This document shows positions 10,364 to 28,523 of a DNA stretch of 64,000 nt, in pieces. Origin of the DNA: an uncultured Woeseiaceae bacterium (lineage in GTDB: Bacteria > Pseudomonadota > Gammaproteobacteria > Steroidobacterales > Woeseiaceae); NCBI GenBank assembly GCA_947258565.1, contig CAMYJB010000002.1, positions 62,001 to 126,000 on the forward strand, written 5' to 3'. A program made the translations under genes and the position numbers. Every line of letters begins with the position of its first letter. Position 1 is the first letter of the stretch. The notes beneath the pieces were generated by a model that was not told the DNA's origin, did no database searches, and saw only the letters and a list, made by a program, of their open reading frames with translations.

Positions 10364-10528
10364 CTATTGCCGGTCCGGATCGCTGCAGTCATCGCGGCGG
10401 CCGCAGCTGCCGCACTTCAGGGAGCGCTCTTTCGCGTCAGGGTCGCGCGCTGCCAGCCATTGCTGGAAGACGGCCCAGGCAGCGCACAGGGCGACGATTG
10501 CGAGCAGGGGCAGGAGATAGCTGGTCAT
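10364..10528 (-). CDS. 54-residue membrane protein with CxxC cluster, last gene of the rnf operon
   Basis: Translating the minus strand after rnfA gives a 54-residue protein: a hydrophobic helix (residues 4-22), then a basic-acidic linker and a cysteine cluster (LKCGSCGRRDDCSD near the end). It starts 15 bases after the rnfA stop and is the last gene of the operon. The layout of one membrane helix followed by four clustered cysteines resembles NqrM, the small protein that delivers iron to the related Na+-NQR complex at its NqrD/NqrE cysteine site; the sequence itself is not obviously NqrM. RnfA and RnfE carry the equivalent iron site, so an Rnf maturation role is a reasonable guess. Confidence 0.6.
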   Translation of the reverse strand: MTSYLLPLLAIVALCAAWAVFQQWLAARDPDAKERSLKCGSCGRRDDCSDPDRQ

Positions 10529-10543
10529 AGCAACGTCGGCCTG

Positions 10544-11122
10544 TCAGGAAGAGCTGAACAGCCCGGCGAATCCCATGAACGCCATCGACAGCACGCCGGC
10601 AATGATCAGGTTCATCGCGGTGCCCTGGATCAGTTTCGGGATGTTCGACAGTTCCGATTCCTCGCGCAGGCCGGCCAGCAGCACGAGCGCCAGGGTAAAG
10701 CCGATCCCGGCGCCGAGCGCATAGACGATCCCCTCGACGAATCCGTAGCCGCGATTGGTCGCGAAGATCGCGAGACCCAGGATCGCACAGTTCGTCGTAA
10801 TCAGCGGCAGGAAAATACCCATCGCCCGGAACAGCGCCGGGCTGAGCTTCTTGATCAGCATTTCGATGAACTGCACCGTGCTTGCGATGACGACGATGAA
10901 ACAGATCAGGCGCAGGTAGGGTGCGTGTATCAACACGTAGGTGTTGAGAACCCAGGCGCAGACGGCGGTCACGAGCATGACGAAGGTCGTCGCCAGGCCG
11001 AGGCGTGCCGACGTTTCCAGGGAGTTGGAAACGCCGAGGAACGGGCACAGCCCGAGGAAGTAGGTCAGCACGAAGTTGTTCACCAGCAGTGCGCTCACAA
11101 AGATCCACGGCAGGTTGTCCAT
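10544..11122 (-). CDS. rnfA: RnfA, membrane subunit of ion-translocating Rnf complex
   Basis: A 192-residue protein with six predicted membrane helices and the family sequences VNNFVLTYFLGLCPFLGVS near the N-terminus and LPLITTNCAILGLAIF in the middle. The two cysteines in those segments are the ones that, with RnfE, hold the membrane iron site. The start ATG overlaps the rnfE stop (TGATG). Rnf couples electron flow between reduced ferredoxin and NAD+ to Na+ or H+ transport across the inner membrane. The longer in-frame extension upstream is an rnfE shadow. Confidence 0.95.
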   Translation of the reverse strand: MDNLPWIFVSALLVNNFVLTYFLGLCPFLGVSNSLETSARLGLATTFVMLVTAVCAWVLNTYVLIHAPYLRLICFIVVIASTVQFIEMLIKKLSPALFRAMGIFLPLITTNCAILGLAIFATNRGYGFVEGIVYALGAGIGFTLALVLLAGLREESELSNIPKLIQGTAMNLIIAGVLSMAFMGFAGLFSSS

Positions 11123-11766
11123 CAGCTGCCACTCCTCTCGGCTTCGGCGACATCCGCCAGGAACTCGTCTTTCTTGTACTTGAACCAGTTGAAGAACAGC
11201 AGGATGACGCCAAGCGTCAGGAATCCGCCCGGCGGCAGGATCATGACAATCCAGGGCTCGAAGCTCTCGCCGAAGAGCCTGAACCCGAACAGCGCGCCGT
11301 CGCCGAGAATCTCCCTGACCGCGCCCAGCGAAAACAGCGCGAGCATGAATCCGCCGGCCATGCCCAGGGCGTCCATGACGGCGAGCCGGGTGGGATACCG
11401 CGACGCAAAGGCTTCCTGGCGCCCGAGGATCAGGCAATTTGCGACGATCAGCGGAATGAAGGCGCCGAGTTCCTTGTGCACTTTGGGCACCAGCGCAAGC
11501 AGGGTGTAATCGGCAATCGTCACGAACGTCGCGATGATGATGATGAAGCAGGAGATGCGCACCTGCTTCGGGATCACGTGGCGGAACACCGAGACCAGGA
11601 AGCTCGATCCGACCAGCACGAACATCGACGCCATGCCCATGGCGATGGCGTTGATCGCCGAGTTCGTAACCGCGAGCATCGGGCACATGCCGAGAACCTG
11701 CACGAACACGGGATTGTCGCGCCAGATACCCTTGACGAATTCTTCATAGGATTCGTTCTTCTTCAT
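11122..11766 (-). CDS. rnfE: RnfE, membrane subunit of Rnf complex
   Basis: A 214-residue protein homologous to RnfA/NqrD, with six predicted helices. The signature VQVLGMCPMLAVTNSAINA holds the first cysteine and IPLIVANCLILGRQEAFAS the second, matching the RnfA/RnfE iron site. The start at 11766 (MKKNESYEEF) overlaps the end of rnfG by 4 bases (ATGA). The C-terminal tail (FKYKKDEFLADVAEAE) is cytoplasmic and charged. Confidence 0.95.
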   Translation of the reverse strand: MKKNESYEEFVKGIWRDNPVFVQVLGMCPMLAVTNSAINAIAMGMASMFVLVGSSFLVSVFRHVIPKQVRISCFIIIIATFVTIADYTLLALVPKVHKELGAFIPLIVANCLILGRQEAFASRYPTRLAVMDALGMAGGFMLALFSLGAVREILGDGALFGFRLFGESFEPWIVMILPPGGFLTLGVILLFFNWFKYKKDEFLADVAEAERSGS

Positions 11767-12443
11767 TGTCCCGTTCCGTTGTCTGCCGGCTCGCCGGCGA
11801 ACGGCGGCTCCGTGCCCGGCGCCGGCAGTTGTTCCGCCCACGCCACGTGGGTCTCATTGATGATCCGTACGACGGCCTTTGCTGAAATCGTCGCGCCCGT
11901 GATGGCGTCGACGTGATTGGGCTGGGTGCTCGTGCCTTTTTTCACCGCGACGATCTCGGGTTCGACCGACAGGGCGCTGAATTCGGCGACGAAATCGGCA
12001 TCCTTGTAGATCTTGTCACCGAGGCCCGGCGTTTCGCGGCTCTCCAGTATCTCCATGCCGACGACCTGTTGCCTGCTCGGCAGGTAGCCGTACAGCAGCG
12101 CTATCGTGTCCTGGAAACCGGGCCCGGCCCCGGGCATCGCATAGCCGACGAAGTCGCCCCGTTCATCGTAGCCACCGTAGACAACGGGCTCGTCTTTCTG
12201 CGGCTTCGGTACGGCCACGATCCTGCCTTCGCGGTACACGAGTGCCTGCATATCGCTGACCCCCGGGAGCACCTTGAACACTGCTTCGCGAAGCTCGCGC
12301 GCCTTGTTGGCCGTAATCGTAGGCAGCGTCGATTCGTAGATACCGATGATTGCGATACCCGACACCAGTCCGGCGATCGCGAGGGTCATCACTAGCCGCA
12401 GCGAGCTCGGCGCAGCCGCCTGTTTGCGTGCGTCCGCCGTCAT
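11763..12443 (-). CDS. rnfG: RnfG, FMN-carrying subunit of Rnf complex
   Basis: A 226-residue protein with one N-terminal membrane anchor (about residues 17-37) and a periplasmic domain. The covalent FMN attachment motif is present as DAITGATISAKAVV, where the Thr in GAT is the flavin-bearing residue of RnfG/NqrC. The upstream GLGDKI segment is also typical. Start and stop overlap neighbours rnfD and rnfE by 4 bases each. The C-terminal tail after the motif is Pro/Glu-rich and slightly longer than usual. Confidence 0.94.
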   Translation of the reverse strand: MTADARKQAAAPSSLRLVMTLAIAGLVSGIAIIGIYESTLPTITANKARELREAVFKVLPGVSDMQALVYREGRIVAVPKPQKDEPVVYGGYDERGDFVGYAMPGAGPGFQDTIALLYGYLPSRQQVVGMEILESRETPGLGDKIYKDADFVAEFSALSVEPEIVAVKKGTSTQPNHVDAITGATISAKAVVRIINETHVAWAEQLPAPGTEPPFAGEPADNGTGQ

Positions 12444-13462
12444 GATTCCTTCTCGATCCCGTGCCCGAATACGCGCGGCTGCGTGTAGCGGTCGATCAGG
12501 GGCGTCGCAGCGTTCATCAGCAGGATGGCGTACATGACGCCTTCGGGCAGGCCGCCGAATACCCGGATCAACATCACCAGCACGCCCGTGCCGATCGCGA
12601 AAATCCATGCGCCGCGCGGCGTGACGGGCGACGTCACCGGATCGGTCGCCATGTAGATTGCGCCGAGCAGCAGGCCGCCGGAAAACACCGAGAACAGTGG
12701 CGTCGGAAAGCGCTCGGCGTCGAACAGGCCCAGGAACGCGGAGAAGATCACGACCGTGCCGAGGATGCCGACCGGAATCCGCCAGTCCAGGTCGCGCCGC
12801 AGCCACAGATAGATGCCCCCGAGCAGCAGCAGGACCCCATTGGTCTCGCCGAGTGATCCACCAATCTTGCCGAACATCAGGTTCGTCAGCGGCGTGACTT
12901 CCTGCTCGAACTTCAACAGGCCGAGCGGTGTTGCCGACGTCACGCCGTCGACCTGCGCCTGCATGAAGGGCAGCGCGAGATTGCCCGCATAGACGCTGAA
13001 GAAGCCGCCCTCCGGATGGGCCGACACCCAGGTCGTCATCGCGATGGGAAACGTGGCCAGCAGGAACGCACGGCCGAGCAGTGCCGGGTTGAACAGGTTG
13101 TGGCCCAGGCCGCCCCAGATGACCTTGCCGAGTGCGATGCCGACGAATCCGCCGAGAAACGCCATCCACATCGGCAGGCCGGGTGGCAGCGTCAGCCCGA
13201 GCAGCAGGCCTGTGAGGATGCCGGTCGCGTCGCGCAGCGATTCGCCGCGCGAGGCGCGGTCGGCAAACAGCCATTCGGCGAGAACCGCGCCCGCGATACT
13301 CGAGCCGATCACCAGCGCCGCGGCGAGGCCGAAGAACCACAGCGAGGCGCCGGTTGCCGGCAGCAACGCGATAATGACGTCGCGCATCGCTTTCGGCGTG
13401 GTCATTCCCTGGCGCAGCAACGGCGCATGGAACAGCAACAGATCCGGATCCCGTTGCTTCAT
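12440..13462 (-). CDS. rnfD: RnfD, FMN-carrying membrane subunit of Rnf complex
   Basis: A 340-residue polytopic membrane protein of the NqrB/RnfD family with about nine to ten helices. The covalent flavin site appears as DGVTSATPLGLL, and the later ATDPVTSPVTPRG is the conserved riboflavin/FMN-region motif. The gene overlaps the rnfC C-terminal ORF and rnfG by 4 bases each. With RnfG, RnfA and RnfE it forms the membrane electron path that drives ion transport. Confidence 0.95.
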   Translation of the reverse strand: MKQRDPDLLLFHAPLLRQGMTTPKAMRDVIIALLPATGASLWFFGLAAALVIGSSIAGAVLAEWLFADRASRGESLRDATGILTGLLLGLTLPPGLPMWMAFLGGFVGIALGKVIWGGLGHNLFNPALLGRAFLLATFPIAMTTWVSAHPEGGFFSVYAGNLALPFMQAQVDGVTSATPLGLLKFEQEVTPLTNLMFGKIGGSLGETNGVLLLLGGIYLWLRRDLDWRIPVGILGTVVIFSAFLGLFDAERFPTPLFSVFSGGLLLGAIYMATDPVTSPVTPRGAWIFAIGTGVLVMLIRVFGGLPEGVMYAILLMNAATPLIDRYTQPRVFGHGIEKES

Positions 13463-13803
13463 GCGTCAGGCTCCTTGCGATTGTTCAGGTCGTCCTTGGC
13501 GGTACGAATGAGCTGCACGATCGGGATGTCGGACGGGCACGCGAAGGTGCAGCAGCCACACTCCACGCAGTCGAAGACGTTATAGGCGCGCATCTCATCG
13601 AACATGCGCGCTTTGGATAGCCGCGCCAGCCGGGACGGGTTCAGGAAATACGGGCACGCCTCGAGGCAGCGGCCGCAGCGGATGCACGGGTATTCCTTGC
13701 GCCGTGCGGTCTGCTCCTCAGTGAAAACGAGCACGCCGGAGCAGCCCTTTAGCACGGGGACGTCGAGACTCGCGATCGGCCTGCCCATCATGGGTCCGCC
13801 CAT
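13459..13803 (-). CDS. rnfC: RnfC C-terminal part (2x[4Fe-4S] ferredoxin module), split gene
   Basis: This 114-residue frame begins at MGGPMMGRPIASLDVPVLKG, which in intact RnfC is internal, right before the ferredoxin module. It carries both iron-sulfur motifs (CIRCGRCLEACPYFLNP and CVECGCCTFACPSDIP). Its ATG lies 16 bases inside the preceding rnfC N-terminal frame, and it overlaps rnfD by 4 bases. Translation from this internal ATG is possible, giving a separate Fe-S subunit. Otherwise RnfC is inactivated. The upstream junction lacks about 25-30 residues normally found between the SLBB region and MGGPMMG. Confidence 0.85.
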   Translation of the reverse strand: MGGPMMGRPIASLDVPVLKGCSGVLVFTEEQTARRKEYPCIRCGRCLEACPYFLNPSRLARLSKARMFDEMRAYNVFDCVECGCCTFACPSDIPIVQLIRTAKDDLNNRKEPDA

Positions 13804-14735
13804 CCGAGCGGCACGATCAGGTTGGCCGGATACGTGACGCCGGGACCCGCGACGGTTACGACCCGCTCAATCAGCGGCAAGCCGCGCAGGAAGTAGTCAG
13901 CGACGGCGACGACGGTGCCGACGTTATTGACGTTGACCTCGACGTCGCGCGGCAGGCGCCCGGCCGGCACCTCGGTACCGAAGACGCTCTTGATCATCAT
14001 CTTCTCGGCACCCTGCGGATACTTGACCTTCAGCGTCACGACGCGCACCGGCTGGTCGGGCGACAGATGCCGGGAAATGGTCTCGATCGCCTCCGGTTTG
14101 TTCGCCTCGATACCGATGACCGATTCTTCAGCACCGAGTTTCTGCCGCAGTATTTCCGCGCCCTCGAGCAGCGCCTCGGGACGCTCGACCATGAGCCGAT
14201 GATCGGTGGTCAGGTATGGCTCGCACTCTGCGCCGTTGATCAACAGGTGCCTGATCTTCACACCGTCGGGCACCGACAGTTTGACATGAGACGGAAAGGC
14301 CGCGCCGCCCATGCCGACGATGCCGGCCATCTGCACGGCCTTGATGAAAGCCTCCAGCGACAGGGAACGCCAGTCAGGCGCGGCATCCGGATCGACTTCC
14401 TGCGTCGCGAACGGGTCGGCTTCGATCGCGATTGCGGGCGTATAGCGGCCATCGACGCCGCGAAAGTCGCCGACGTCATTCACCACACCCTTGACCGGGC
14501 TGTGCAGCGCCGTCGAGACGAAGCCGCCGGGCTCCGCGATAAGCTGTCCGCGCTCGACCGGATCGCCCGCCGCAACGACAGCCCTGGACGGCACACCGAT
14601 ATGCTGACCGAGCGGCATGATGTAGTGCCTGCCGAACGGGACGCGCTGAATGGGCAGGTTCTCCGTCTGCTGTTTGTGGTGGGCCGGATGAACCCCGTGT
14701 TCGAAATTGCGGCGCAGGCGGCGGAACGCTTTCAT
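13788..14735 (-). CDS. rnfC: RnfC N-terminal part (NADH/FMN-binding Nqo1-like domain), split gene
   Basis: A 315-residue frame with the RnfC N-terminal region (HPAHHKQQTENLPIQRV, then PVKGVV), the Nqo1-like nucleotide/FMN fold (GMGGAAFPSHVK, LLINGAECEPYL) and the start of the SLBB part. It runs as far as TVAGPGVTYPANLIVPLG and then reads into WADP and a stop. In normal RnfC about 30 residues follow LVP(I/L)G before MGGPMMG. Here CTCGG joins directly to ATGGGCGGACC out of frame, as expected from an internal deletion. The start lies 2 bases after the 1460-residue gene. Confidence 0.88.
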   Translation of the reverse strand: MKAFRRLRRNFEHGVHPAHHKQQTENLPIQRVPFGRHYIMPLGQHIGVPSRAVVAAGDPVERGQLIAEPGGFVSTALHSPVKGVVNDVGDFRGVDGRYTPAIAIEADPFATQEVDPDAAPDWRSLSLEAFIKAVQMAGIVGMGGAAFPSHVKLSVPDGVKIRHLLINGAECEPYLTTDHRLMVERPEALLEGAEILRQKLGAEESVIGIEANKPEAIETISRHLSPDQPVRVVTLKVKYPQGAEKMMIKSVFGTEVPAGRLPRDVEVNVNNVGTVVAVADYFLRGLPLIERVVTVAGPGVTYPANLIVPLGWADP

Positions 14736-14737
14736 GG

Positions 14738-17700
14738 TCAGCTCCGTTTCCGCGACGCGAGCGCGAGCAGGCGACTGCGAATCTGCGCGGCGATCTCGGT
14801 CTGGGTCTGTTCCCGGATTGCCTTGATCTCGGCCTCCGAAGCCTGCTTCTGCGCGTCGAGCTCCGCTGCGTGCTCCGCGGCGACCGCGGCACGAATTTCG
14901 GCCTCGACGCGCTCCGTGAAGGGCGTCACGATACCTGCGAGTTCCTGCAGAGTCCGCCAGTTCGCGAGACAGCCGGCCGCCACGTCCGCGACGGCCGCGG
15001 AGACGGCAAAGCGCTGCTCGTCGTCAGCGTCGCCATCGGCGACGTACGGGGTCTTGTTGTGGCGGCCCTTGTCGTCGAGCTGCAGCCACTCGTCCAGGGG
15101 GGTCGGGGCGGGCGCGTTGGCGGTAAGCGGCGCAAACTGGCTGGCGAACCGGTCCTGCCGGAATGCCCAGTCGGCTGGCGTCAGGTCCCGGCCGTTCCCG
15201 TCCGTCGACACACGGGTTTCGTCAGGCGCGGGATTACCGTCAAGCGACAGGCGCGAACCGAACACCCCGTCGCCGTGCGGATCGTAGCGGAATACCGGCA
15301 GTGTGCGGGAGTCGAGTGCGAGCCGTGCTATGTCGATGGTTTGCCGCGTTTCGAAGCCATGACGGCCGGGACTCGGCGCATAGACCTGCAACAGTGCGGG
15401 GCCCTCCCACGCGAGCGCCTGCAGCATGCTTTCGCCGAGATGGACAGGGTTCGCTATCGACGTCTGCGCGACGAACGCTTTGCGCTGCGCCAGGGCGAGC
15501 AGCCCGAGGCTCGAGCGCGGGTCGTTCGTCTGCGACTCGCGCAGGCCGAAGTCCAGGTCGCTGAGGATCAGCATCTTCACGGGCAGTCCGGAATTCAGCA
15601 GCCATATCAGCTGGCCGAGGCCCGGCCCTGCAAGCATCTCGTCGCTGCCGATCAGCACCAGGGGCGGGCAGAGCTCGAGTTCGTCTTCGCTGAGATCCTG
15701 CCAGTGCAGATCCGCCAGAGCCGCCCGCTTCCACTCGATGCCGTCGGCCTGGTCGATCTCCAGTCGTGCGAGGCGCAGGAGTCGCACCATTTCCGTGGTC
15801 TCGTGCAGGTGGCCCTCGACGAGCCCGGCGGCCAGTTGTGCAGCATCGCCCGTCATGTCGATTACGACCGGCGCCTGGAAGGGGTTGTGCGGGAAAGCGC
15901 CGGCCCACGCCGCCGTACTCCCGCCGCTTACGGCAAGCCCGTAGCGCGCGCGGCCGAGCCCGTGAGCGCCGGCGACAAGATCATGGTGTGCCGCCCTGAT
16001 GCGTGTCGAGAGCTCCAGCAGGCGCAACAGGTTGTCGGTGTCGACAGAATGGTCACCGCCGGACTGCCCGACGCTCTCCGCGAGTTCATGCAGGTCGACA
16101 CGCGGGCTGCTGGTCGTCCGGAGCCGCTCGCTCACTGCCTCGAGGTCGTCGACCGCAAGCGTGTGCGACAGCGTCTCTTCGACCAGCGTCGCCACCGATT
16201 CGCCGGCATCGGCGAGGGACGTTGCGAAATTCTGCACGAGAGGCTGCTGGTGGAATTCCGTCGCGGCGAGTGCCAGCCTCACGGCAATCTTCTCGCCCGA
16301 GCCGGCTTCGGCCGGGTCTCCACCCGACATCACGAACTGGCAATAGCGCGATAGCAGTATCGACGACATTTTGCCGATCTCTGCATTGTCCGCGATGCGC
16401 TCGATCGTTCCGGATGTCGTGTCCGGCGTCGCCGAGAACACCGACCAGAGGTCCCTGGCCCTCGCCAGCACGTCCGGATCCTGTTCGACCGGCTGCAGCG
16501 CTTCGTCCTCGCAGCTGTGCACGCAGATACCGCAGGATTTGCAGGCGTCCGGGTTAATAACGATCGACAGCAGCTCCGCGGCGTCTTTCTTTACGGCTTC
16601 GGCGTCATGGAAGAATGGCTGCGTGACGGCAACCGGCAGCGCGCCCAGCTCGCGAACGATACCGCTGATGCCCTCATCGATGGCCTTCTTGCGGTCTTCG
16701 TCGAGCGGCATCTTGTCCTTGAGCCAGGCGTATGCATCGTCGAGCAGGGTGCCGAACGCCGGCGCGACGTCTTCGGATTTTCTGTTCGCGGCAATGATGC
16801 GTGTGGCGAGTTTCGCAGCGACGGGTCGGACGGCGTCGGCGCTCGCGAGCCGGATGCCGGCGTCGATCAGCGCGGCCGGCGCCAACGAGACGACGCCGAT
16901 TGCGCTGTCGGGGCAGTTTGTCCAGCACTTGCCGCAACCGGTGCAGGGCGCCGGATCGAATACCGGCATGCGCGATCGCTTGCCGCTTGTCGTGTTGAAG
17001 GTTGCACTGAGCGGCGGCATCGTGCCGGTGGCGAGGAAGGGGTCCGCGGTCAGCCGGCCGGCTTCGCCGTCGCGGTACAGCACACCGGCCTGGTCCCAGA
17101 ACCGGGGCAGGCTCGCAAACACGTCATCATCGCGTCCGAGGTGGCGAACCGCAGCAGGCGCTTCTCCCTCCCATGCGGTCACGCCGGCAGCCGCTTCTGG
17201 CGCCACCGGTGTCGATTCACCGATCTGCTCGAGGCCCGCCTGGAATGCCTCCGTCATCGCATCGCGACGCGCCGCGTCCACTCCTTCGAGCAACGCGCGG
17301 CGTGCGGAGACAATCCGGCGTGCCTTGTGATCGATCAGCCCGGCGTCGAGCAGTGATCCGAACAGTGCACCGAGCAGCCGTTCCGGTCGGTCGCCGTTGT
17401 CCGCCGCTGCAACCGGGAAGGTCCGGCCCTGTCCGAGCAGCGTAATCTGGCTGCGGATGGCGTCGACTGCGACGTCCGCGACGAGTCCGTCGCCCGGATC
17501 GAGCATAGTGTCATCGCCGACCACCAGCCAGTCCGTCTGGACGTCGCTCCAGCCGTCCCACGAGGTCGCCGGCCGGCTGCGGACACGCCCTTCGTCCAGT
17601 TTGTGCAGCAGGGCTGCCGCCGTTTCCAGGAGTGTCCGGCCGAGCGCGGCGTCCATCCGCCGGATCGCGATGACCGTCGATGCCGGAGATACGCGTGCTG

Positions 17701-19120: not shown

Positions 19121-19962
19121 CAGGCGGTGCCCGCTTTCCGGGACGCCTGGTCCTGGAATTGTTCGCGTTCGAGCCAGACGATCGAGCGGGTCGGGCAGCG
19201 GAATATGGCATCGGGCCTGGGCTCGCCGCCGGACGAATAGTCGATGACGGGCAGGTTGTCCTGCATCGTAATCAGTCCCGGGGAGGCATCGGCAGCGCAG
19301 CGTCCACAGGCATCACAGGCCACGTTGCAGAGCTGCGTGGCGGCCTCACCCGCGAGCGGGATATTGCACTGCACGTAGAGGTTCTGGCTCAGGGGCACGA
19401 GTTCGAACAGGTCGCGCGGGCATGCTGCCGTGCAATCCGGGCAGGCGGTACATTTCTCGGTGTCCACCTGCGGCAGTCCGTTCGCGTTCATGTGGATCGC
19501 ATCGAAGGTGCAGGCACGTTCGCAATCGGCAAGACCGAGGCAGCCCCATGCGCAGCCTTTGCCGCCGCCCGACACCAGCGCCGCCGCCCGGCAGCCCTCG
19601 AATCCCTGGTACTCGGCGATCTGGTTTGCCTGTGCACGGCCACCGGCGCAGCGCAGCCTGGCGACCAGTTTCTCCTGGCTGCCCGCATCGACCTGCAGAT
19701 AGTCCGCGATCTCCTCAATGGCATCGGCGGTGCTTACCGTGCACTGGCTCGGCTGGACTTCGCCGGCGACGAGCTTCTCCGCGAACGGCAGACAGCCCGG
19801 CTGCCCGCAGGCGCCGCAGTTAGTGCCGGGCAGGAGTTCGTTGGTTGCTTCGATCCGCGGATCCTCGTCCACCTTGAGGAAGCGCTGCGCGATGGCCAGG
19901 ATCGCGCCGAAGAACAGGCCGATGCCTACCATGATTGCGGGCGCTACGAGGATGCTGTTCAT
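19120..19962 (-). CDS. rnfB: RnfB, polyferredoxin subunit of Rnf complex
   Basis: A 280-residue protein with an N-terminal membrane anchor and the RnfB Fe-S domain NCGACGQPGCLPFAEKLVAG, followed by the conserved segment GCAWGCLGLADCERACTFDA and further ferredoxin cysteines (CTACPDCTAACP, CNVACDACGRCAADAS). It accepts electrons from ferredoxin and passes them to the other Rnf subunits. The C-terminal 50 residues end in a CPTRSIVW motif, typical of the longer RnfB proteins. Its placement is unusual: it sits between the two giant PFOR-like genes rather than next to rnfA. ATG 19962 overlaps the preceding stop; the TTG one codon earlier is less likely. Confidence 0.94.
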   Translation of the reverse strand: MNSILVAPAIMVGIGLFFGAILAIAQRFLKVDEDPRIEATNELLPGTNCGACGQPGCLPFAEKLVAGEVQPSQCTVSTADAIEEIADYLQVDAGSQEKLVARLRCAGGRAQANQIAEYQGFEGCRAAALVSGGGKGCAWGCLGLADCERACTFDAIHMNANGLPQVDTEKCTACPDCTAACPRDLFELVPLSQNLYVQCNIPLAGEAATQLCNVACDACGRCAADASPGLITMQDNLPVIDYSSGGEPRPDAIFRCPTRSIVWLEREQFQDQASRKAGTA

Positions 19963-22433
19963 CAATTAAACGGTGCTGCTCGCGCGATCAGTTCGTCGAG
20001 ATTTGCTTCGTCGGGGTTCAGCGGTTTGCCGGGATGGATGCACTTGGCCGGGCAGATCTCGGCCGCCCTGACGAGGTCCTCGAAGGTACCGGCAGTCGGA
20101 TCCGTGAGGTACGCCTGCTTATCGTCGTTGTAAGCGAACATCATCTTGTTGATGTCCATACAGTCGTCGCAGGTCGTACAGGCCGGCGTGTCGAGCCAGG
20201 GTTCGTCGAAACTGAGCTCCTCCTCGGGCTCCTCGGCGTCTGCCGGCTCGGGTTCCGCCGCGGCTTCGGTCTCGTCGGCTTCGGCCGGCGCCTCGACCTC
20301 GGCAGGGCGTGCAGCCGGCATCGTTGCGAGCTGGCCGCCGTCGGTAAGCATGCCGGACAGGTCCGCTCCCATGAGCACGTCGACAAGCTGCCCCATGGCC
20401 TCGCCGGCTGCCTCCGTGCGAACGGACTCCAGTTCTTCTGCATGCTCCTTACGCAGCTGCTCGCGTTCGGCCTCCAGTTCAGCGCGCTGCTCTTCGATGA
20501 TCCGTTCGATCGCTTCCTCGACGTAGTAGTTCTGCACGCCGGCGAGCTCCTGCAGGGCGTGCCAGTAGTTGAGGCGATCCCGGCAGGCGAAAATAAGTGC
20601 GCGCGATACCACCAGCCGGACCAGTACGCCGTCCTCGCCGATGCCCCACACGAACGGGACGAGGCGATCGCGGCGCTCCTCGTCTGCGTCGAGGTACTCG
20701 GCCACGGTGACCAGCTCTTCCGGCGCGATGCCGGTCGGCACCATGCGGAAGTGCTCGTGCAGAGCCGGCATCAGCAACGCATAGTCGGCAAACGTAAATG
20801 CCAGCTCCATGGTCGTCTCTTCGCCGTCGGCGCTGCGGTAGTCCAGCGTCTCGACCGGCCAGTCGGCATCCGGCTGCGGATTGCCGTCGAACCTGACGCG
20901 CTTCGCGGCCTGATCGCCGGCGTCCGGGTCGATGAGCAGGAACGGGTGTGCGCGGCTCTCCAGGGCCGCGCTGGCAACGAACCAGGGTTCGAGGATCGGC
21001 TTGGTCGATTGCGTCTGCGTGCCGCGGTTGATCAGGTGCAGGCTCGTGCGGTTGCTGTCGATGGCGCACGTAAAACCTGCCAGCAGGCCCTCATGGCGCG
21101 CCGCCGATGTCTGCGCCACGACGACCTGGCGATGGCCGATGCCGAAGTTCGCCAGCTCGAAGCGATACGCGTCGAAGGGGCCCTCGCCGGGTTTCACAGC
21201 CGGATTGTCGTAGGCGCGCACCCATGTAAGCACGTGCACCGGCAACCGTGAGCCGAGCAGGTGCGAGAACGCGGACAAGCCGTCGGTGGCGAGGTAGTCG
21301 GCTGACTCCAGGGCCACCGCGCGCGGCACGAGCTGCAGCTCCTCGTCGGAGAATGCCTGCCAGTCGAAACTGGCGAACCATGAATCGTGCACGGCCGGAT
21401 CGTATTGATCATCGAGTTCGAGGCCGGCGATGCGCAATGCCGCAAACAGGCGGGCGAAGCGCCCGGCGTCGTCGAGGAACAGCTCGCTTGCGGTCGCGCA
21501 CGCCTCGTAGCTCTCGACGATATCCAGATCGGTTTGTTCGGCGAACCAGGGATTGAGGACGCGGCCCGCAATTCGAACCAGCACGGCGTCATCGTCCCAG
21601 GACTGCAACTCGCCGAGCGCGCTCTCTATCCGGGATCGCCGTTCGGGCGCCATCTCCTGCGAACCCTGCGACCGTTTACCGAGCATTCCCGACAAGGCAT
21701 CGCTGTCCAGGTGGCGCCCCGCAGGACCCACGCTGCCGCTCACGCTCTCCGGTTCGTTGCCCTCTGTCGACTTGGACTGCTCGACAAGGAGCAGCGACTC
21801 GAGCGCGGCGGCGCGCTTCTCGACCTCGCGGCGCAGTTCGTTGCGGTGCGGCGCGAGCAGGTGCCGGATCGCGTGCACAAAGAGGTGCAGCGGCACGTCG
21901 GGCCCGTAGCCGAGGTACTGGCTGCCTTCCGCCACCGTGGCTCCCAGCTTGGCCAGATCGGCTGCGAGTGTCTCGCGGTTGTCGCCCGTGAGCTGCAGGT
22001 GCTCTTGCAGCGCCTCTGCCGCCTCCGAGAACAGCGGCGGCGCGTCGACCGGATCAGGCCCCGTCAGCTTTTGCCGAAGGAAGCGTTCCAGCCACGGCAG
22101 ATTGTCCTTGAGTATCTTCGCCTGCCCGGCGGCCGGCGCGAAGGTCTCGATCGACTCCGCCAGGTGCTCGGAGAGCGGGCTCGCCAGCGCGGTCTCCGGC
22201 GCTTCGCCACGCGGCACGAGGTAGAGCGGATACTGGTAGCGGATTGCCGAGGAATCCCGGTAGGGATTGAGGAGCGCGGGCAGAACTGCACCGGCGGGCG
22301 GCGACGTCGACGCGGCTGCCGACGGTTCACCGTAATGAAATCGGCGCAGCAGCCTGATCACGGCTGCACCCTCTTCGACTTCCGTCCGCGCCGTTTCCAC
22401 GGCGGACGTCTTGTTTTCGGCTGCGGAGTCCAT
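19962..22433 (-). CDS. 823-residue protein: degenerate PFOR beta-like domain, coiled coil, C-terminal ferredoxin
   Basis: I recognise no catalytic family over the first 300 residues. From about residue 320 the protein is clearly related to the C-terminal region of the 1460-residue neighbour: WQAFSDEELQLVPRAV against WQDLSEDELELCPPLV, then LPVHVL against LPVKML and VVVAQTSAARHEGLL against FVAQTSIANPVHLGE, ending with WHALQELAG against WRTLQELAG. A charged coiled coil (about 590-640) and an acidic Pro/Glu linker lead to a ferredoxin-like end with C752, C755, C758, C794 and C798. Neither protein keeps the thiamine motif. It lies 12 bases after korB and overlaps rnfB. An adaptor carrying electrons from KorAB to RnfB is the natural hypothesis. 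Confidence 0.68.
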   Translation of the reverse strand: MDSAAENKTSAVETARTEVEEGAAVIRLLRRFHYGEPSAAASTSPPAGAVLPALLNPYRDSSAIRYQYPLYLVPRGEAPETALASPLSEHLAESIETFAPAAGQAKILKDNLPWLERFLRQKLTGPDPVDAPPLFSEAAEALQEHLQLTGDNRETLAADLAKLGATVAEGSQYLGYGPDVPLHLFVHAIRHLLAPHRNELRREVEKRAAALESLLLVEQSKSTEGNEPESVSGSVGPAGRHLDSDALSGMLGKRSQGSQEMAPERRSRIESALGELQSWDDDAVLVRIAGRVLNPWFAEQTDLDIVESYEACATASELFLDDAGRFARLFAALRIAGLELDDQYDPAVHDSWFASFDWQAFSDEELQLVPRAVALESADYLATDGLSAFSHLLGSRLPVHVLTWVRAYDNPAVKPGEGPFDAYRFELANFGIGHRQVVVAQTSAARHEGLLAGFTCAIDSNRTSLHLINRGTQTQSTKPILEPWFVASAALESRAHPFLLIDPDAGDQAAKRVRFDGNPQPDADWPVETLDYRSADGEETTMELAFTFADYALLMPALHEHFRMVPTGIAPEELVTVAEYLDADEERRDRLVPFVWGIGEDGVLVRLVVSRALIFACRDRLNYWHALQELAGVQNYYVEEAIERIIEEQRAELEAEREQLRKEHAEELESVRTEAAGEAMGQLVDVLMGADLSGMLTDGGQLATMPAARPAEVEAPAEADETEAAAEPEPADAEEPEEELSFDEPWLDTPACTTCDDCMDINKMMFAYNDDKQAYLTDPTAGTFEDLVRAAEICPAKCIHPGKPLNPDEANLDELIARAAPFN

Positions 22434-22445
22434 GGTCGTTCCGGG

Positions 22446-23402
22446 TCAGATGGCGAAATGGTCCAGCGCTTCGTTGAGGCCGGCGAGCCTTTCCTCTGCC
22501 GTCATCTCGAGGCCGGCTGCCGACATCAGGTCGTAACGCGGCGCATCGGGATTGAGGTAGAGAATCCCGAGTGGCAGTTCGTCCGGGTTCTCGGCGAATT
22601 CGCGCGCGGCGTGAATATCGGACGGATCGTGCTCCGCATGATTCGGGAACTGGCGTTTGACAGTATCGTCGACCTGCACGCCCTTCTCGTGCGTCAGCAA
22701 CTTCAACCTCGCAGGTTCGTCCTGCAGCGTCTTGCCGATGGATTCGACGTAGACAGGACAACGCTGGATGATTCTTACGAAACTCGTCCCCTTGTGCGCG
22801 TGGGCTTTCTTGATCACTTCGTGCCGCAACTGTGCATTCCAGTCCACGATCTGCGCGATGAAGGAGATGTTCGTGATGCCCAGCGTCACGGTCAGCGGGT
22901 TCATCGGCGGCAGCAGCGCACCCGAGGGATGGGTATTGGTCGGTACGTCCAGCGGCGTCGTCGGCGAGGTCTGTTTCTTCGTCAGCCCGTAGATGCCGTT
23001 GTCGAAGACCAGTACCGTCAGGTCCATGTTGTAGCGCATCGCATGGATCCAGTGAGCGGCGCCGATCGAGAAACAGTCGCCGTCGCCCGTCGCGACCCAC
23101 ACATCGAGATCCGGGCGCCGCGACTTGACGCCGCAGGCGACCGGCAGGGCGCGCCCGTGCAGGCCGTGAAAGCCGTAGGTATTCATGTAATGGGGAAGCC
23201 GGCTGGAGCAGCCGATACCCGACACGGCTACGGTCTTTTCGGGTTTGAGCTGCGCGTCACGGCACACCCGGTGCACTGCCGCCAGGATGCCGTGGTCACC
23301 GCAGCCCGTGCACCAGCGTGGTTCGGCGCCGCAGTAATCTTCCAGCGTGAAATAACGTTCCTTGACTTCGAGAGACCAGTCACCTTTCAAGCCGAACATC
23401 AT
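22446..23402 (-). CDS. korB: 2-oxoacid:ferredoxin oxidoreductase beta subunit
   Basis: A 318-residue thiamine-pyrophosphate subunit. The cysteines in PRWCTGCGDHGI and SGIGCSSRLPHYM hold the [4Fe-4S] cluster, and the thiamine motif is intact (TGDGDCFSIGAAHW ... VFDNGIYGLTKKQTSPT). With KorA it oxidatively decarboxylates a 2-oxoacid, most likely 2-oxoglutarate, to the acyl-CoA and reduces ferredoxin. The preference for 2-oxoglutarate is inferred from similarity to two-subunit KorAB enzymes and is not proven. It overlaps korA by 4 bases, in contrast to the two degenerate PFOR-like proteins downstream, which keep no such site. Confidence 0.92.
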   Translation of the reverse strand: MMFGLKGDWSLEVKERYFTLEDYCGAEPRWCTGCGDHGILAAVHRVCRDAQLKPEKTVAVSGIGCSSRLPHYMNTYGFHGLHGRALPVACGVKSRRPDLDVWVATGDGDCFSIGAAHWIHAMRYNMDLTVLVFDNGIYGLTKKQTSPTTPLDVPTNTHPSGALLPPMNPLTVTLGITNISFIAQIVDWNAQLRHEVIKKAHAHKGTSFVRIIQRCPVYVESIGKTLQDEPARLKLLTHEKGVQVDDTVKRQFPNHAEHDPSDIHAAREFAENPDELPLGILYLNPDAPRYDLMSAAGLEMTAEERLAGLNEALDHFAI

Positions 23403-25543
23403 TCTGCTCCTTCCATCTGTTCGAGGGTTTCGTCAATGACCCGGCCGATGGTGGCGGGTGACAACGGGTGGCCCGGGACCTTGGACCAGCAGTCAATATC
23501 CATGAGCGTGTGCGCGCGCAGTGCGTACGCGAGCTGTGCGTAACGCCGGTTTTCGATACCGGACAACGGTGCGTCGGGCGCGTCGCTGTAGTTGAGTTCG
23601 ATGGTCTTGATCTTCCTGAATCTCGAGAAGATCTCCTTGAGGCCGGGTTCCAGCGGCGACAGGAACCTGAGGTGCACCGAGGACACGTTCTTGCCGGCGG
23701 CCCGAGCCAGGTCGACCGCTTCCTCGATAGCGCCGATTGTCGAACCCCAGCCGACGATCAGCAGATCGCCTTCGGGATCGCCATGTACCTCGGGTGCCTT
23801 CAGCGTCGCCGCCAGCGCGGCCAGCTTGCGGCTGCGCATGTCCATGCCTTCCTGGTTGGACCTCGTGTCGTAGGCAATCTTGCTGTTGCGGTTGTGGGCA
23901 AGGCCCGTGAGGATGTATTCGCCGCCGCGCATGCCGGGAATCGGGCGTTCCGACAGCCCGGTCTTTTCATCCCAGTCATACGGCGGCACGTTCCTGTCCC
24001 ACGGCGACTGGTCGATCGGCGGGGCGAACCACTCGTCCGTCACGTCGGGCCGCTCGATCGCCTGCACGCCCGTGGCCAGGTTGGCGTCGGTGAGGATCAG
24101 CACCGGCGTGCGGAATGACTCGGCAAGCTTGCGGGCCATGACTACGAAATGGAAACACTCCGAAATCGTCGATGCGGCCAGCACCACCTTGGGCGCATCG
24201 CCCGGCGCGCCGAAGAGCGCGGCAAGCAGGTCGCCCTGCTCGATCTTGGTCGGCAACCCTGTCGCCGGGCCGCCGCGCTGCACGTCAATGATCACGAGCG
24301 GGATCTCGGCCATAACGGCGAGGCCGATCATCTCGGTCTTGAGCGCTATACCGGGACCGGAGGTAATCGTACAGGCGGTTTTGCCGGCATACGAGGAGCC
24401 GATCGCGAAGCCGATGGCGGCAATCTCGTCCTCGGCCTGGTGCACGAAACCGCCGGTCAGGTGAAAGTCCTCGGCCAGGTAATGCGAGGCGGACGTCGCG
24501 GGCGTGATCGGGTACATGGCAACCATTTCGATACCGGCGGCCATGACGCCGAGGCCGGCGGCCTGGTTGCCGTTTATGACCACGACCGAATCGAGCCGGT
24601 CCTCCGGCGCCGTCGTGATGCTGAACTGGTAGTCGATGTTGTCGCGGGCGAACGCGTAGCCGGCGTAGAGCAGGTCATGGTTGATCTTGATGACCGTGTC
24701 GCTCTTCTTGCGGAAAATCTTGGCGATTTCTTCCTTCGCCATTGTCGTGTCGCGGTCATAAATGTGGCAGAGCATACCGAGCACGAACATGTTCTTGCCC
24801 TTGCGCGGGTCGGACACGATCTTGAGGCATTCCTGCTGGATCGGCAGCTCGTGCACGACCAGGCCACGCTGCTTGAAGTCGGCGAGCGCTTCGGCGTACT
24901 GCTCGCGCACGGCCGGCTCGGGGTCCTCGGCCCACATGTTTTCGAGGAGCACGACGGTGCCTTCCCTGTAGGCGCCGTTCTGGATGCGGGAGTAAAGGAC
25001 CTGCTCGTTGAAGGCGACGACCATGTCGGCTTCGTTGCCCATGTTGGTCATGTACTTCGACCCCATGCGCACGCGGATGCCACTGGCGCCCTGTTGCGAA
25101 CGCGCCGGCGGCTGTATCTCGGCCGGGATGATTTCGACGGTCCACACGCCGTTGCCCATCTTGCCGCTGACGAGGCCCATGAGCTGGCCGCATTTCTGCG
25201 CCCCCTCGCCGGAGTCACTGACGATTTCGACGATGTGCTGATCCACCGCGATCGGACCGGCCTGTGATTTCCCGTTGCGGCTCTCGCGATTTCCCGGGCT
25301 CTGCTTGCCCTCGTCTGTCTCGCCGCCTCTGAGGGCCTTTACCTTCTCGATTTCGCTGCGGAATTCCTCGATGACCTCCCAGCGCGTCGCGCGCGCGGCT
25401 TCCAGATCGTGGGTGTGCAGCGAGCGCCGCAGGTCGTAGCCGAGCTCGTCTCGCAGAGTACGCGGCACGGCGACCTTGACCCACCAGGTCTTATCGCGTT
25501 TGAACAAGTACCTGGTATCGCCCTCTACATGTGAATCTGACAT
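23399..25543 (-). CDS. korA: 2-oxoacid:ferredoxin oxidoreductase alpha/gamma subunit with N-terminal integrase-like (DUF6538-type) domain
   Basis: A 714-residue fusion. From residue 100 on it is a normal KorA: gamma domain (DSGEGAQKCGQLMG), then the alpha domain with YPITPATSASHYL (344-356), HQAEDEIAAIGFAIG and TGLPTKIEQGDLLAALFG. The first 70 residues are different: YLFKRDKTWWVKVAVP, then LRRSLHTHDLEAARATRW. That is the pattern of the DUF6538-type N-terminal domain of tyrosine recombinases, ahead of a charged linker (71-98). A good GAGGAG site six bases before the ATG at 25543 supports translation of the extension. Residue 122 is the next internal Met and would cut into the gamma domain. First gene of the Kor-Rnf operon. 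Confidence 0.9.
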   Translation of the reverse strand: MSDSHVEGDTRYLFKRDKTWWVKVAVPRTLRDELGYDLRRSLHTHDLEAARATRWEVIEEFRSEIEKVKALRGGETDEGKQSPGNRESRNGKSQAGPIAVDQHIVEIVSDSGEGAQKCGQLMGLVSGKMGNGVWTVEIIPAEIQPPARSQQGASGIRVRMGSKYMTNMGNEADMVVAFNEQVLYSRIQNGAYREGTVVLLENMWAEDPEPAVREQYAEALADFKQRGLVVHELPIQQECLKIVSDPRKGKNMFVLGMLCHIYDRDTTMAKEEIAKIFRKKSDTVIKINHDLLYAGYAFARDNIDYQFSITTAPEDRLDSVVVINGNQAAGLGVMAAGIEMVAMYPITPATSASHYLAEDFHLTGGFVHQAEDEIAAIGFAIGSSYAGKTACTITSGPGIALKTEMIGLAVMAEIPLVIIDVQRGGPATGLPTKIEQGDLLAALFGAPGDAPKVVLAASTISECFHFVVMARKLAESFRTPVLILTDANLATGVQAIERPDVTDEWFAPPIDQSPWDRNVPPYDWDEKTGLSERPIPGMRGGEYILTGLAHNRNSKIAYDTRSNQEGMDMRSRKLAALAATLKAPEVHGDPEGDLLIVGWGSTIGAIEEAVDLARAAGKNVSSVHLRFLSPLEPGLKEIFSRFRKIKTIELNYSDAPDAPLSGIENRRYAQLAYALRAHTLMDIDCWSKVPGHPLSPATIGRVIDETLEQMEGAE

Positions 25544-27356: not shown

Positions 27357-27809
27357 ATGGATGTAGGGAAAAGACTGTTACTCAAGGGCGGTGTCGCGCT
27401 CACGGTGCTCGCGGCCCTGCCGAGAACACTGCTGGCAGCGACGTGGCCCGAGAAGGCGTTTGCGGCGACCGAAGCCGATGCCGCGATGTCGACGCTGTTC
27501 GGCACGAACCAGGCAGCGCCGTCCGACCAGATCACGTTGAAAGTGCCGGCGATCGCAGAGAACGGCGCCGTAGTACCGGTCACGATCAGCACGACGCTCG
27601 GCAACGTGGAGTCGATCAGTATCGTGGTGGAGAATAATCCCCGGCCGCTGGCGGCCAGTTTCGAGATTCCCACAGGGACGCTGCCAAACGTTTCCAGCCG
27701 GATAAAGATGGGCGAAACGTCCGACGTGATTGCGGTCGTCAAAACGGATACCGGTCTCTACCGCACGTCCAGGCAGGTCAAGGTTACGATCGGTGGCTGT
27801 GGCGGCTGA
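27357..27809 (+). CDS. soxY: SoxY, thiosulfate-carrier subunit
   Basis: A 150-residue secreted protein ending in VTIGGCGG, the swinging-arm motif whose cysteine carries the sulfur substrate in the Sox pathway. The N-terminal signal (KRLLLKGGVALTVLAALP) looks like a Tat signal but has Lys-Arg where most SoxY proteins have the twin arginine. It pairs with SoxZ, encoded 21 bases downstream. The gene is intact although its partners soxX and soxA on either side are broken. Lone SoxYZ occurs in bacteria that route the carrier to other sulfur enzymes. Confidence 0.94.
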   Translation: MDVGKRLLLKGGVALTVLAALPRTLLAATWPEKAFAATEADAAMSTLFGTNQAAPSDQITLKVPAIAENGAVVPVTISTTLGNVESISIVVENNPRPLAASFEIPTGTLPNVSSRIKMGETSDVIAVVKTDTGLYRTSRQVKVTIGGCGG

Positions 27810-27830
27810 TCGCGCGGAGGGAGACGAGTA

Positions 27831-28145
27831 ATGGCAAGCAAGATTAAGGTCAAGGCAAAACTGTCGGGAGACGTGGCGGAAATCAAGAGCCTCATGCTTC
27901 ATCCGATGGAAACCGGGGCGCGCAAGGATCCTGACACCGGCGAACTGGTGCCCGCGCACTACATTACCCAGCTGACGTTCACGAACAACGGCGAGACGGT
28001 TATGGTTGCCAATTTCAGCACGGCCGTATCGAAGAATCCGTATTTCGGTTTCAGCTTCAGCGGTGCGAAGGCGGGTGACACGCTCAAGGTCAGCTGGGTT
28101 GACAACCAGGGTGCCACGGACGAACTCGAGACGGTGCTGAATTAG
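27831..28145 (+). CDS. soxZ: SoxZ, partner of SoxY
   Basis: A 104-residue protein typical of SoxZ (KIKVKAKLSGDVAEIKSLM near the start, PMETGARKD, NPYFGFSFSG near the end). It has no signal peptide, as expected, because it is exported bound to SoxY. A GGAGGGAG ribosome-binding site precedes the ATG. The reading frame is complete. Confidence 0.94.
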   Translation: MASKIKVKAKLSGDVAEIKSLMLHPMETGARKDPDTGELVPAHYITQLTFTNNGETVMVANFSTAVSKNPYFGFSFSGAKAGDTLKVSWVDNQGATDELETVLN

Positions 28146-28170
28146 CGGCTCGCGGCGGATCGACACCTGC

Positions 28171-28380
28171 ATGAAAGACTGTGCCGCCATGCTGTTGCTG
28201 GGCCTCGTGCCGATGCTGTCGCAGCAGGCGGCAGTGGCGGGTCCCGAGGAGGACCGCGAGGCTTTCGTCGAGTATTCCCAGTCGCGATTTCCCGAGGTGC
28301 CGTTTGCGGAGTTCGCGAACGGTATCTATGCGATCGACGAAGATGTGCGCAGCCAGGTCACCGGCACCTGGGCATGGTAA
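28171..28380 (+). pseudogene. soxA: Truncated soxA (N-terminal remnant)
   Basis: The 69-residue frame has a signal peptide followed by DREAFVEYSQSRFPEVPFAE and FANGIYAIDEDVRSQ, a clear match to the start of mature SoxA. After SQ the sequence turns into VTGTWAW and a stop. Normal SoxA has over 200 further residues, including one or two heme sites and the active-site cysteine, all missing. Together with the broken soxX this removes the SoxXA cytochrome that loads SoxY. The break lies just upstream of an unrelated small frame (28374). Confidence 0.75.
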
Positions 28381-28523
28381 AAACGCCGGAGGAATTCATG
28401 ATCCTGGGTGAGTACATCAAGGGCAAACACTACTTCGATACCGAGTACGAGGTCTTCGCCGAGCGACACGGGCAAGACAGGCGTGACAACATACTCGTAA
28501 CGCCGGCGGGGGAAAGCGAATGA
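28374..28523 (+). CDS. 49-residue ORF upstream of the thiosulfate permease
   Basis: A 49-residue frame overlapping the soxA remnant stop and ending in ATGA with the permease gene, so it could support its translation. The sequence (VKTPEEFMILGEYIKGKHY, then FDTEYEVFAERHG) is well ordered and charged, not random-looking. It may be the C-terminal end of a gene whose front was lost in the same event that truncated soxA. I cannot name its family. There is a GGAGG site ahead of an internal Met (28398) as well. Confidence 0.4.
   Translation: MVKTPEEFMILGEYIKGKHYFDTEYEVFAERHGQDRRDNILVTPAGESE

What the first reader, a model, noticed from the sequence alone, without database searches (positions are those of the whole stretch)
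10364..25543. Kor-Rnf operon with two giant, thiamine-dead PFOR-like proteins
One compact minus-strand operon encodes KorAB (intact 2-oxoacid:ferredoxin oxidoreductase), all Rnf subunits, and two large proteins (823 and 1460 residues) that share a diverged PFOR beta-type region. The 1460-residue protein retains PFOR domain order and two [4Fe-4S] sites but lacks the YPITP, CAGCGE and GDGW...N thiamine features; the 823-residue one ends in a ferredoxin module. Nearly all junctions are stop/start overlaps, so stoichiometric expression is likely. The simplest model is a membrane-bound assembly in which PFOR-derived proteins act as electron bridges or scaffolds, so that 2-oxoacid oxidation drives NAD+ reduction and ion pumping (or the reverse) without free ferredoxin. 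I know of no description of such a complex. Known: Kor reaction, Rnf coupling, PFOR architecture. Inference: complex formation and direction.
Basis: partly seen in the sequence, partly recalled or inferred. Interest (0 to 1): 0.93.

Follow-up and report, generated by a model that had tools for sequence, protein, structure and literature searches.

The report
Rnf pump wired to 2-oxoacid oxidation
A bacterial operon appears to bolt a 2-oxoacid-oxidising enzyme onto an ion-pumping membrane complex through two giant retired enzymes that now seem only to carry electrons, which would let a central metabolic step charge the membrane (or be driven by it); the complex itself has not been purified or tested.

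Summary
Window 25543-10544 (minus strand) encodes KorA, KorB, an 823-aa protein (P823), RnfB, a 1460-aa protein (P1460) and RnfCDGEA; 7 of 9 junctions overlap. RnfC is split by a 64-nt gap absent in three relatives. P1460 has a PFOR fold. In 48 aligned P1460s none keeps the catalytic Glu, GDG, Asn-Thr or proximal-cluster cysteines; all keep the eight dicluster cysteines. P823 matches the C-terminal half of a PFOR and keeps only a terminal ferredoxin. Both are under purifying selection. In 369 genomes of the class, P1460, P823 and this Rnf type occur in the same 12. New here: a sister clade, rnfB-P1650-rnfCDGEA, without korAB beside it, has in the same slot an apparently catalytic PFOR with the same tail ferredoxin. 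So P1460 and P823 are probably retired copies of a PFOR that was already an Rnf subunit, with KorAB as the new catalyst. sucCD inside two relatives' operons points to 2-oxoglutarate. Best model: KorAB, then P823, P1460, RnfB, and NAD+ via RnfC, with ion pumping, possibly reversed. Assembly and direction are inferred. I saw no description in the open-access papers searched.

The parts
23399..25543 (-). KorA, alpha-gamma subunit of a two-subunit 2-oxoacid:ferredoxin oxidoreductase, with N-terminal DUF6538 (residues 12-68)
   Evidence: TIGR03710 488.5 bits, above its cut-off of 482.75; POR_N and POR; YPITP at residue 344; best solved match 6n2n_A E 3e-78
22446..23402 (-). KorB, thiamine and [4Fe-4S] subunit, intact motifs
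   Evidence: TPP_enzyme_C, TIGR02177 237.8 bits, under its cut-off of 261.9; CTGCG, GIGC, GDGD, DNG, RC; best solved match 6n2n_B E 1e-50
19962..22433 (-). P823: degenerate copy of the C-terminal half of a PFOR-type Rnf subunit, with coiled coil and tail single-cluster ferredoxin (residues 749-800)
19120..19962 (-). RnfB (280 aa, 20 Cys)
   Evidence: FeS domain PF04060, TIGR01944 82.4 bits, above cut-off, start codon, Cys positions
14738..19120 (-). P1460: PFOR fold without thiamine motifs or proximal cluster; keeps a 2[4Fe-4S] dicluster (residues 726-736 and 860-870) and a C-terminal coiled coil
13459..14735 (-). RnfC, split here into 14735-13788 and 13803-13459 (64 nt absent versus three relatives)
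   Evidence: TIGR01945 profile 3-304 and 326-434; alignment with L018, L004, L001
12440..13462 (-). RnfD
   Evidence: TIGR01946 331 bits; GET motif at residue 205 (its link to the covalent flavin is recalled)
11763..12443 (-). RnfG
   Evidence: start at 12443; TGAT motif at residue 182 (its link to the covalent flavin is recalled); homologues 50-91 percent identical at the same place in window-type loci
11122..11766 (-). RnfE
   Evidence: TIGR01948 227.7 bits, above cut-off; start at 11766; Cys 28 and 111
10544..11122 (-). RnfA
   Evidence: Rnf-Nqr PF02508; start at 11122; Cys 26 and 112

Best explanation
The operon most likely encodes one membrane-bound assembly: an ion-pumping 2-oxoacid (probably 2-oxoglutarate):NAD+ oxidoreductase. 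KorAB, the only protein of the operon with thiamine motifs, oxidises 2-oxoglutarate plus CoA to succinyl-CoA and CO2 (shown: intact motifs; inferred: substrate). Its electrons pass to the ferredoxin domain tethered to P823, then to the two [4Fe-4S] clusters of P1460, then into RnfB, across the membrane subunits, and out through RnfC to NAD+ while ions are pumped (all inferred). P1460 and P823 are retired copies of a PFOR that was already an Rnf subunit. They kept the fold, coiled coils and distal Fe-S sites, and lost the thiamine motifs and the proximal cluster (shown by sequence). The exchange of catalyst is inferred from the sister clade. The chain could run backwards, with the membrane gradient and NADH driving reductive carboxylation.
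For: Gene order kor-P823-rnfB-P1460-rnfCDGEA in distant relatives. Of 54 P1460 loci, 42 have rnfB as next recognised gene upstream, 37 of those have P823 next, 31 of those korB next, and 36 of 54 have rnfC next downstream. Same 12 of 369 genomes for P1460, P823 and window-type RnfD. Selective loss: none of 48 P1460s, nor L098, keeps Glu, GDG, N-T or a proximal Cys, and all keep 8 of 8 dicluster Cys. The five tail Cys of P823 are kept in 24 of 24. Purifying selection. The sister clade has an intact PFOR with the same tail ferredoxin in the same slot, 14 of 14 with rnfC downstream where the contig allows. Profile and tree descent. PFOR fold. sucC and sucD inside the operon of L071 and L075.
Against: No physical evidence of a complex; co-occurrence is also expected of a co-regulated pathway. 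RnfC is broken in this assembly. Five P1460 loci with over 1 kb upstream have no rnfB next to them, and eight with 2.9 kb or more downstream have no rnfC. P823 lies about 4 kb from P1460 on the other strand in L024. A P823-like protein with korAB occurs without any detected RnfD in G213, although that empty search lacks a positive control. KorAB could still use free ferredoxin. The middle Asp of GDG stays in 42 of 48 P1460s. The P823 model is only moderately confident (pLDDT 71) and its PFOR match stands little above other thiamine enzymes. The P823-P1460 sister grouping has weak support (0.60). The Rnf tree has one outgroup and no other Rnf types, and G032 has a B-like RnfD without P1650.
Confidence: 0.66

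Rival explanations
1. Co-regulation only: KorAB, a conventional ferredoxin-using Rnf and the two giants share an operon but no stable complex forms; free ferredoxin connects KorAB and Rnf, and the giants are ferredoxin-like adaptors.
For: Operons often group enzymes of one pathway; the own genome also carries a canonical rnf set. In 5 loci with over 1 kb upstream P1460 is not beside rnfB, and KorAB with a P823-like protein exists without detected RnfD in G213.
Against: The PFOR-type subunit lies between rnfB and rnfC in two Rnf clades, co-occurs near perfectly with its own Rnf type, and P823 and P1460 share a coiled coil while P823 has a tethered ferredoxin, none of which a soluble shuttle needs.
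Confidence: 0.2
2. Reductive use (a rival on direction, not on assembly): the same assembly works mainly backwards, spending the ion gradient and NADH to drive reductive carboxylation of succinyl-CoA to 2-oxoglutarate.
For: The own genome also has a 2-oxoglutarate dehydrogenase E1, so oxidation does not need KorAB. Carriers include Beggiatoaceae-type titles, recalled as sulfur oxidisers; Sox genes lie beside the window operon. PMC6315080 (passages read) proposes a wired OGOR for reverse-TCA carbon fixation in other Gammaproteobacteria.
Against: No citrate-cleavage gene was looked for here. Gene content does not set direction. sucCD is bidirectional (recalled).
Confidence: 0.3
3. P1460 and/or P823 keep an enzymatic activity of another kind, for example a redox enzyme without thiamine.
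For: Several residues around the old active site are invariant in the 20 rows of A1, e.g. R138, H143, D1160, E1161; in the wider set the Asp stays in 42 of 48 and the Arg column has Q, S or K in some rows.
Against: The thiamine motifs and all four proximal-cluster Cys are gone; no other cofactor domain was found by Pfam or NCBIfam.
Confidence: 0.08

Closest known systems
Pyruvate:ferredoxin oxidoreductase (PFOR; 6cin, 1b0p, 7plm)
   Different: No YPITP, catalytic Glu, GDG..N-T or proximal cluster; C-terminal coiled coil; encoded inside an rnf operon; a second, shorter copy (P823) is present.
P1650: PFOR encoded between rnfB and rnfC in other genomes of the class (unnamed; found here)
   Same: Same slot; aligns with P1460 over 1401 columns (E 2e-153) and with P823 residues 11-823 (E 5e-94); same tail ferredoxin.
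   Different: All checked catalytic motifs and proximal Cys intact (15 of 15 Rnf-linked); no korAB or P823 beside it in the stretches held, except that L015 carries both types in a row.
[quoted passage not shown]
   Same: KorA residues 104-652 and KorB residues 21-289 match with intact motifs.
   Different: KorA has an extra DUF6538 end in near relatives; gene order joins it to a tethered ferredoxin protein and Rnf.
Rnf complex (ferredoxin:NAD+ oxidoreductase; A. woodii structure, PMC11889175)
   Same: All six subunit types; RnfA and RnfE each keep two Cys spaced like the membrane [2Fe-2S] ligands that the paper describes (passages; positions).
   Different: Extra PFOR-derived genes between rnfB and rnfC and before rnfB; distinct from the genome's canonical rnf (27-48 percent identity).
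Hdr-Flx with KorABCD in tubeworm symbionts and Thioflavicoccus (PMC6315080)
   Same: Published proposal, from gene order, that an OGOR is wired directly to another electron-transfer complex (passages read).
   Different: Four-subunit OGOR and bifurcating Hdr-Flx, not Rnf with retired PFOR subunits.

Membership tests
Catalytic PFOR (for P1460) | PFOR fold and domain order | tested here: met
Catalytic PFOR (for P1460) | Thiamine/Mg motifs (YPITP, catalytic Glu, GDG..N-T; roles recalled) | tested here: not met
   No complete motif in 48 of 48 P1460 frames of at least 1200 aa or in L098. The Glu column is a gap in one cut row and the YPITP stretch is unaligned in 12; the middle Asp of GDG stays in 42 of 48
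Catalytic PFOR (for P1460) | Four Cys of the proximal [4Fe-4S] cluster (role recalled) | tested here: not met
   0 of 4 in all 48, and in L098
Catalytic PFOR (for P1460) | 2[4Fe-4S] ferredoxin-type domain | tested here: met
   8 of 8 Cys in 48 of 48
KorAB 2-oxoacid:ferredoxin oxidoreductase | Two subunits, intact YPITP in KorA, GDG..N and four Cys in KorB | tested here: met
KorAB 2-oxoacid:ferredoxin oxidoreductase | 2-oxoglutarate as substrate | tested here: inconclusive
   sucC and sucD inside the operon of L071 and L075 and closest solved relative 6n2n, titled an OGOR, suggest it; no assay
Rnf complex | Subunits A, B, C, D, E, G | tested here: met
   RnfC is in two frames in this assembly but one frame in L018 and L004
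Rnf complex | Ion-coupled electron transfer between ferredoxin and NAD+ | not testable with these tools
   Needs a biochemical assay

The most novel reading that the evidence does not exclude
A new class of respiratory complex: Rnf pumps with a built-in 2-oxoacid oxidoreductase. The founding form carries a complete PFOR as an Rnf subunit (pyruvate:NAD+ with ion pumping). The window's form duplicated that subunit, retired both copies into an electron wire, and plugged in KorAB, making the 2-oxoglutarate step of the TCA cycle an energy-coupling site without free ferredoxin.
Probability: 0.5. Interest if true: 0.93.

Novelty: new variant of a known kind. Interest (0 to 1): 0.85.

Why it matters
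In textbook metabolism the energy between the 2-oxoacid couple and NAD+ is lost at 2-oxoglutarate or pyruvate dehydrogenase (recalled: roughly -0.49 V versus -0.32 V). A pump wired to the oxidoreductase would conserve it, or let a cell spend a membrane gradient on carboxylation, without letting low-potential ferredoxin meet oxygen. It would add an entry point to respiratory chains in bacteria titled Woeseiaceae and Beggiatoa relatives, recalled as common in sediments. It would also give a clean case of an enzyme turned into wiring, next to its catalytic cousin in the same operon slot, sometimes in the same genome (G167, G218, G343, G350).

Tried and rejected
Considered and rejected: (a) pseudogenes or gene-calling artefacts: long open frames in 48 places and dN/dS about 0.14-0.15 against L018. 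(b) A misread active PFOR: the motifs are gone, and an intact PFOR-like protein exists elsewhere in the genome (L108). (c) P823 as a plain ferredoxin protein: residues 11-823 align with the C-terminal half of P1650. (d) Kor replacing a missing 2-oxoglutarate dehydrogenase: E1 is present, over the family cut-off.

Led nowhere: the promoter scan found none upstream of korA. Sequence search of P823 against solved structures found only a ferredoxin and likely chance matches. P823 residues 1-17 and the linker 689-741 are low-confidence. Structures of pairs could not be predicted with the tools at hand. The phylum-wide search with P1650 hit 45 of 398 genomes; of the 10 stretches that I then read, two are rnf-linked P1650, three the NfnAB-side type and five have split PFOR frames without rnf. 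Five more genomes (G084, G110, G208, G227, G311) are ordinary-looking hits; four were read and have split frames without rnf, G208 was not read. The third protein search was not used.

Limits and rows dropped: only the two best candidates of each genome were scored, so absences are softer than presences; six of the 20 P1650 genomes rest on partial frames. G332 is counted as window-type by gene order and motifs (L098), its RnfD (53 percent) being close to the best B type (52 percent). G213 matches P823 only in the tail and is not counted as full-length. The motif table used only open frames of at least 1200 aa, so cut P1460s (e.g. L011, L041, L043, L044, L077, L078) are not in it. The Rnf tree used the 42 sets that I listed (30 A, 11 B, 1 canonical). 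In L018 and L071 korA, and in L071 also P823, lie in more than one frame, so broken frames are not peculiar to the window.

Motif roles (which residues bind thiamine, Mg, the proximal cluster or flavin) and redox potentials are recalled, not from a call.
Full report
What is there. One minus-strand gene string runs from 25543 to 10544: korA, korB, P823, rnfB, P1460, rnfC, rnfD, rnfG, rnfE, rnfA. Seven of nine junctions overlap by 1-4 nt and the other two have gaps of 2 and 12 nt. KorA scores 488.5 bits with TIGR03710, above its cut-off. KorA and KorB keep YPITP, GDG, DNG and four cluster cysteines, and their best solved relative is the Magnetococcus marinus enzyme 6n2n.

The thiamine site. I aligned all PFOR-type open frames of at least 1200 aa found up to then (69 rows; recounted). 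Of these 48 are P1460s. None of the 48 keeps the catalytic glutamate (one row is cut there), the GDG triplet, the Asn-Thr pair or any of the four proximal-cluster cysteines; the middle Asp of GDG stays in 42. All 48 keep all eight dicluster cysteines. A deep relative, L098, lacks the motifs and keeps the dicluster too. The five cysteines of the P823 tail are kept in 24 of 24 rows. Against the near relative L018, P1460 has dN 0.096 and dS 0.65, and P823 has 0.047 and 0.34, so both proteins are under selection. They lost the catalytic part and kept the wiring.

Relatives. A scan of genome contigs gave 45 loci, titled Gammaproteobacteria including Woeseiaceae, Chromatiales, Thiomargarita, Thioploca, Beggiatoa relatives and Sedimenticola, apart from one titled only uncultured proteobacterium. 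In 42 of 54 rnfB is the next recognised gene upstream; in 37 of those 42 P823 follows, and in 31 of those 37 korB; in 36 of 54 rnfC is the next recognised gene downstream. Of the 12 loci without rnfB, 7 have under 1 kb of sequence upstream; the other five (L022, L024, L031, L032, L034) are real exceptions. Of the 18 without rnfC, 10 have under 1 kb downstream and 8 have 2.9 kb or more. In 12 genomes with such split or cut loci, 11 carry a window-type RnfD (59-67 percent identical) elsewhere; for L024 it lies on another contig. In L071 and L075 sucC and sucD sit between P1460 and rnfC; L073 and L076 have open frames of about the same size there, not searched. In L038, L074-L076 and L078 a frame resembling RnfC at 24-29 percent identity precedes korA; the L075 copy is NuoF-like.

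Co-occurrence. Three searches over the same 369 genomes of the window's class gave P1460 in 12 (eleven at E below 1e-160, plus G332, read through L098), full-length P823 in 12, and RnfD of at least 53 percent identity in 12. These are the same twelve: G000, G034, G098, G102, G167, G218, G219, G319, G332, G336, G343, G350. Only the two best candidates per genome were scored.

The sister clade. The same searches uncovered rnfB-P1650-rnfCDGEA without korAB or P823 beside it. P1650 (full frames of 1649-1724 codons) has alpha, gamma, dicluster and beta domains and a tail Fer4_13 ferredoxin in the two searched. YPIT, Glu, GDG, N-T and all proximal and dicluster cysteines are intact in 15 of 15 Rnf-linked copies, and the four tail cysteines in 14, the fifteenth being cut. 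Of 16 copies, rnfB is next upstream in 14; L104 is cut and L105 has rnfB at the other end of its cluster. RnfC is next downstream in 14 of the 14 with room. B-type RnfD (44-52 percent) occurs in 20 of 369 genomes and P1650 in 20, six of these by partial frames, with 19 shared; G032 has only the RnfD and G286 only P1650. Four genomes (G167, of the window's genus, G218, G343, G350) carry both types, and L015 carries both in a row.

Descent. Profile comparison aligns P1460 residues 24-1460 with P1650 (E 2e-153) and P823 residues 11-823 with its C-terminal half (E 5e-94). A tree of six concatenated Rnf proteins puts the 30 window-type and 11 P1650-type sets in separate clades (1.0 and 0.996), with the genome's own canonical Rnf as the single outgroup and no other Rnf types in it. 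A beta-domain tree of 73 sequences groups P1650, P1460 and P823 (0.997), with P823 and P1460 as sisters on weak support (0.60); outside lie thirteen others, of which the five full-length ones are motif-intact and the eight split ones were not checked. So the PFOR slot in this Rnf lineage is probably older than the loss of catalysis, and the loss came with the arrival of korAB and P823. This order of events is inference.

Mechanism. Shown by sequence: an intact KorAB, a tethered single-cluster ferredoxin, a dicluster protein without a site of its own, and all Rnf subunit types. In the solved A. woodii Rnf, RnfB is the ferredoxin entry point and electrons take a U-shaped path to RnfC (passages of PMC11889175). 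Inferred: KorB cluster to P823 ferredoxin to P1460 dicluster to RnfB. Split loci fit this order: RnfB stays with P1460 where no rnfC follows (L026, L039, L045; L023 is cut), and korAB stays with a P823-like protein in G213, where no RnfD was detected (that search had no positive control). Direction is open: the genome has 2-oxoglutarate dehydrogenase E1, a second, canonical rnf and an intact PFOR-like protein, and soxY, soxZ and a thiosulfate-transporter-like gene lie next to the operon.

Literature. No title, listed abstract or passage that I saw describes this operon. Passages were read in PMC6315080 (OGOR proposed to be wired to Hdr-Flx; [quoted passage not shown] whether that gene is P1460 was not tested) and PMC3534657 (gene order rnfBCDGEA known from Bacteroidetes and Chlorobi). 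Only open-access PMC papers were searchable, and supplements were not.

Verdict. I file it as a new variant of Rnf, not as a PFOR. Physical assembly, substrate and direction remain to be shown at the bench.

Noticed in passing
window 13459-14735: rnfC lies in two frames: 64 nt present in relatives L018, L004 and L001 are absent, and the shift ends the first part. Assembly error or real lesion unknown.
   Followed up: partly
window 25340-25510 (KorA residues 12-68): DUF6538 fused to the N-terminus of KorA. KorA aligns from residue 1-9 in 13 near-relative loci; in more distant, uncut KorAs the match starts at residue 80-102. The domain itself was not searched for in the relatives.
   Followed up: partly
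L143:9697-17664, L144, L150: A 1681-1684 codon intact PFOR-type frame whose tail cysteines align (Pfam gives no Fer4_13 in L143); in L143 it is followed by a 972-aa protein with Fer4_20, Pyr_redox_2, NAD_binding_1 and DHODB_Fe-S_bind domains (NfnAB-like, by recall): a giant PFOR beside a different electron module, without Rnf in the stretch held.
   Followed up: partly
L099:3307-10567: korA with a long N-terminal extension (1138-codon frame), korB and a 977-codon P823-like frame with two Fer4_13 stretches; no RnfD detected in that genome.
   Followed up: partly
L015:3440-24607: Both types stand head to tail in one contig: korAB-P823-rnfB-P1460-rnfCDGEA followed by a second rnfB and a P1650 cut by the end of the stretch.
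   Followed up: partly
L075:1196-4128: A FAD_binding_2 flavoprotein and a NuoF-like NADH-binding protein directly upstream of korA, perhaps a further NADH or fumarate link.
   Followed up: partly
window 27357-29662: soxY (GGCGG type), soxZ and a TsuA-like thiosulfate transporter (below the family cut-off) beside the operon suggest thiosulfate oxidation.
   Followed up: no
L098:2881-5205: An aldehyde ferredoxin oxidoreductase with a C-terminal ThiS-like domain lies just upstream of korA in the deep relative.
   Followed up: no
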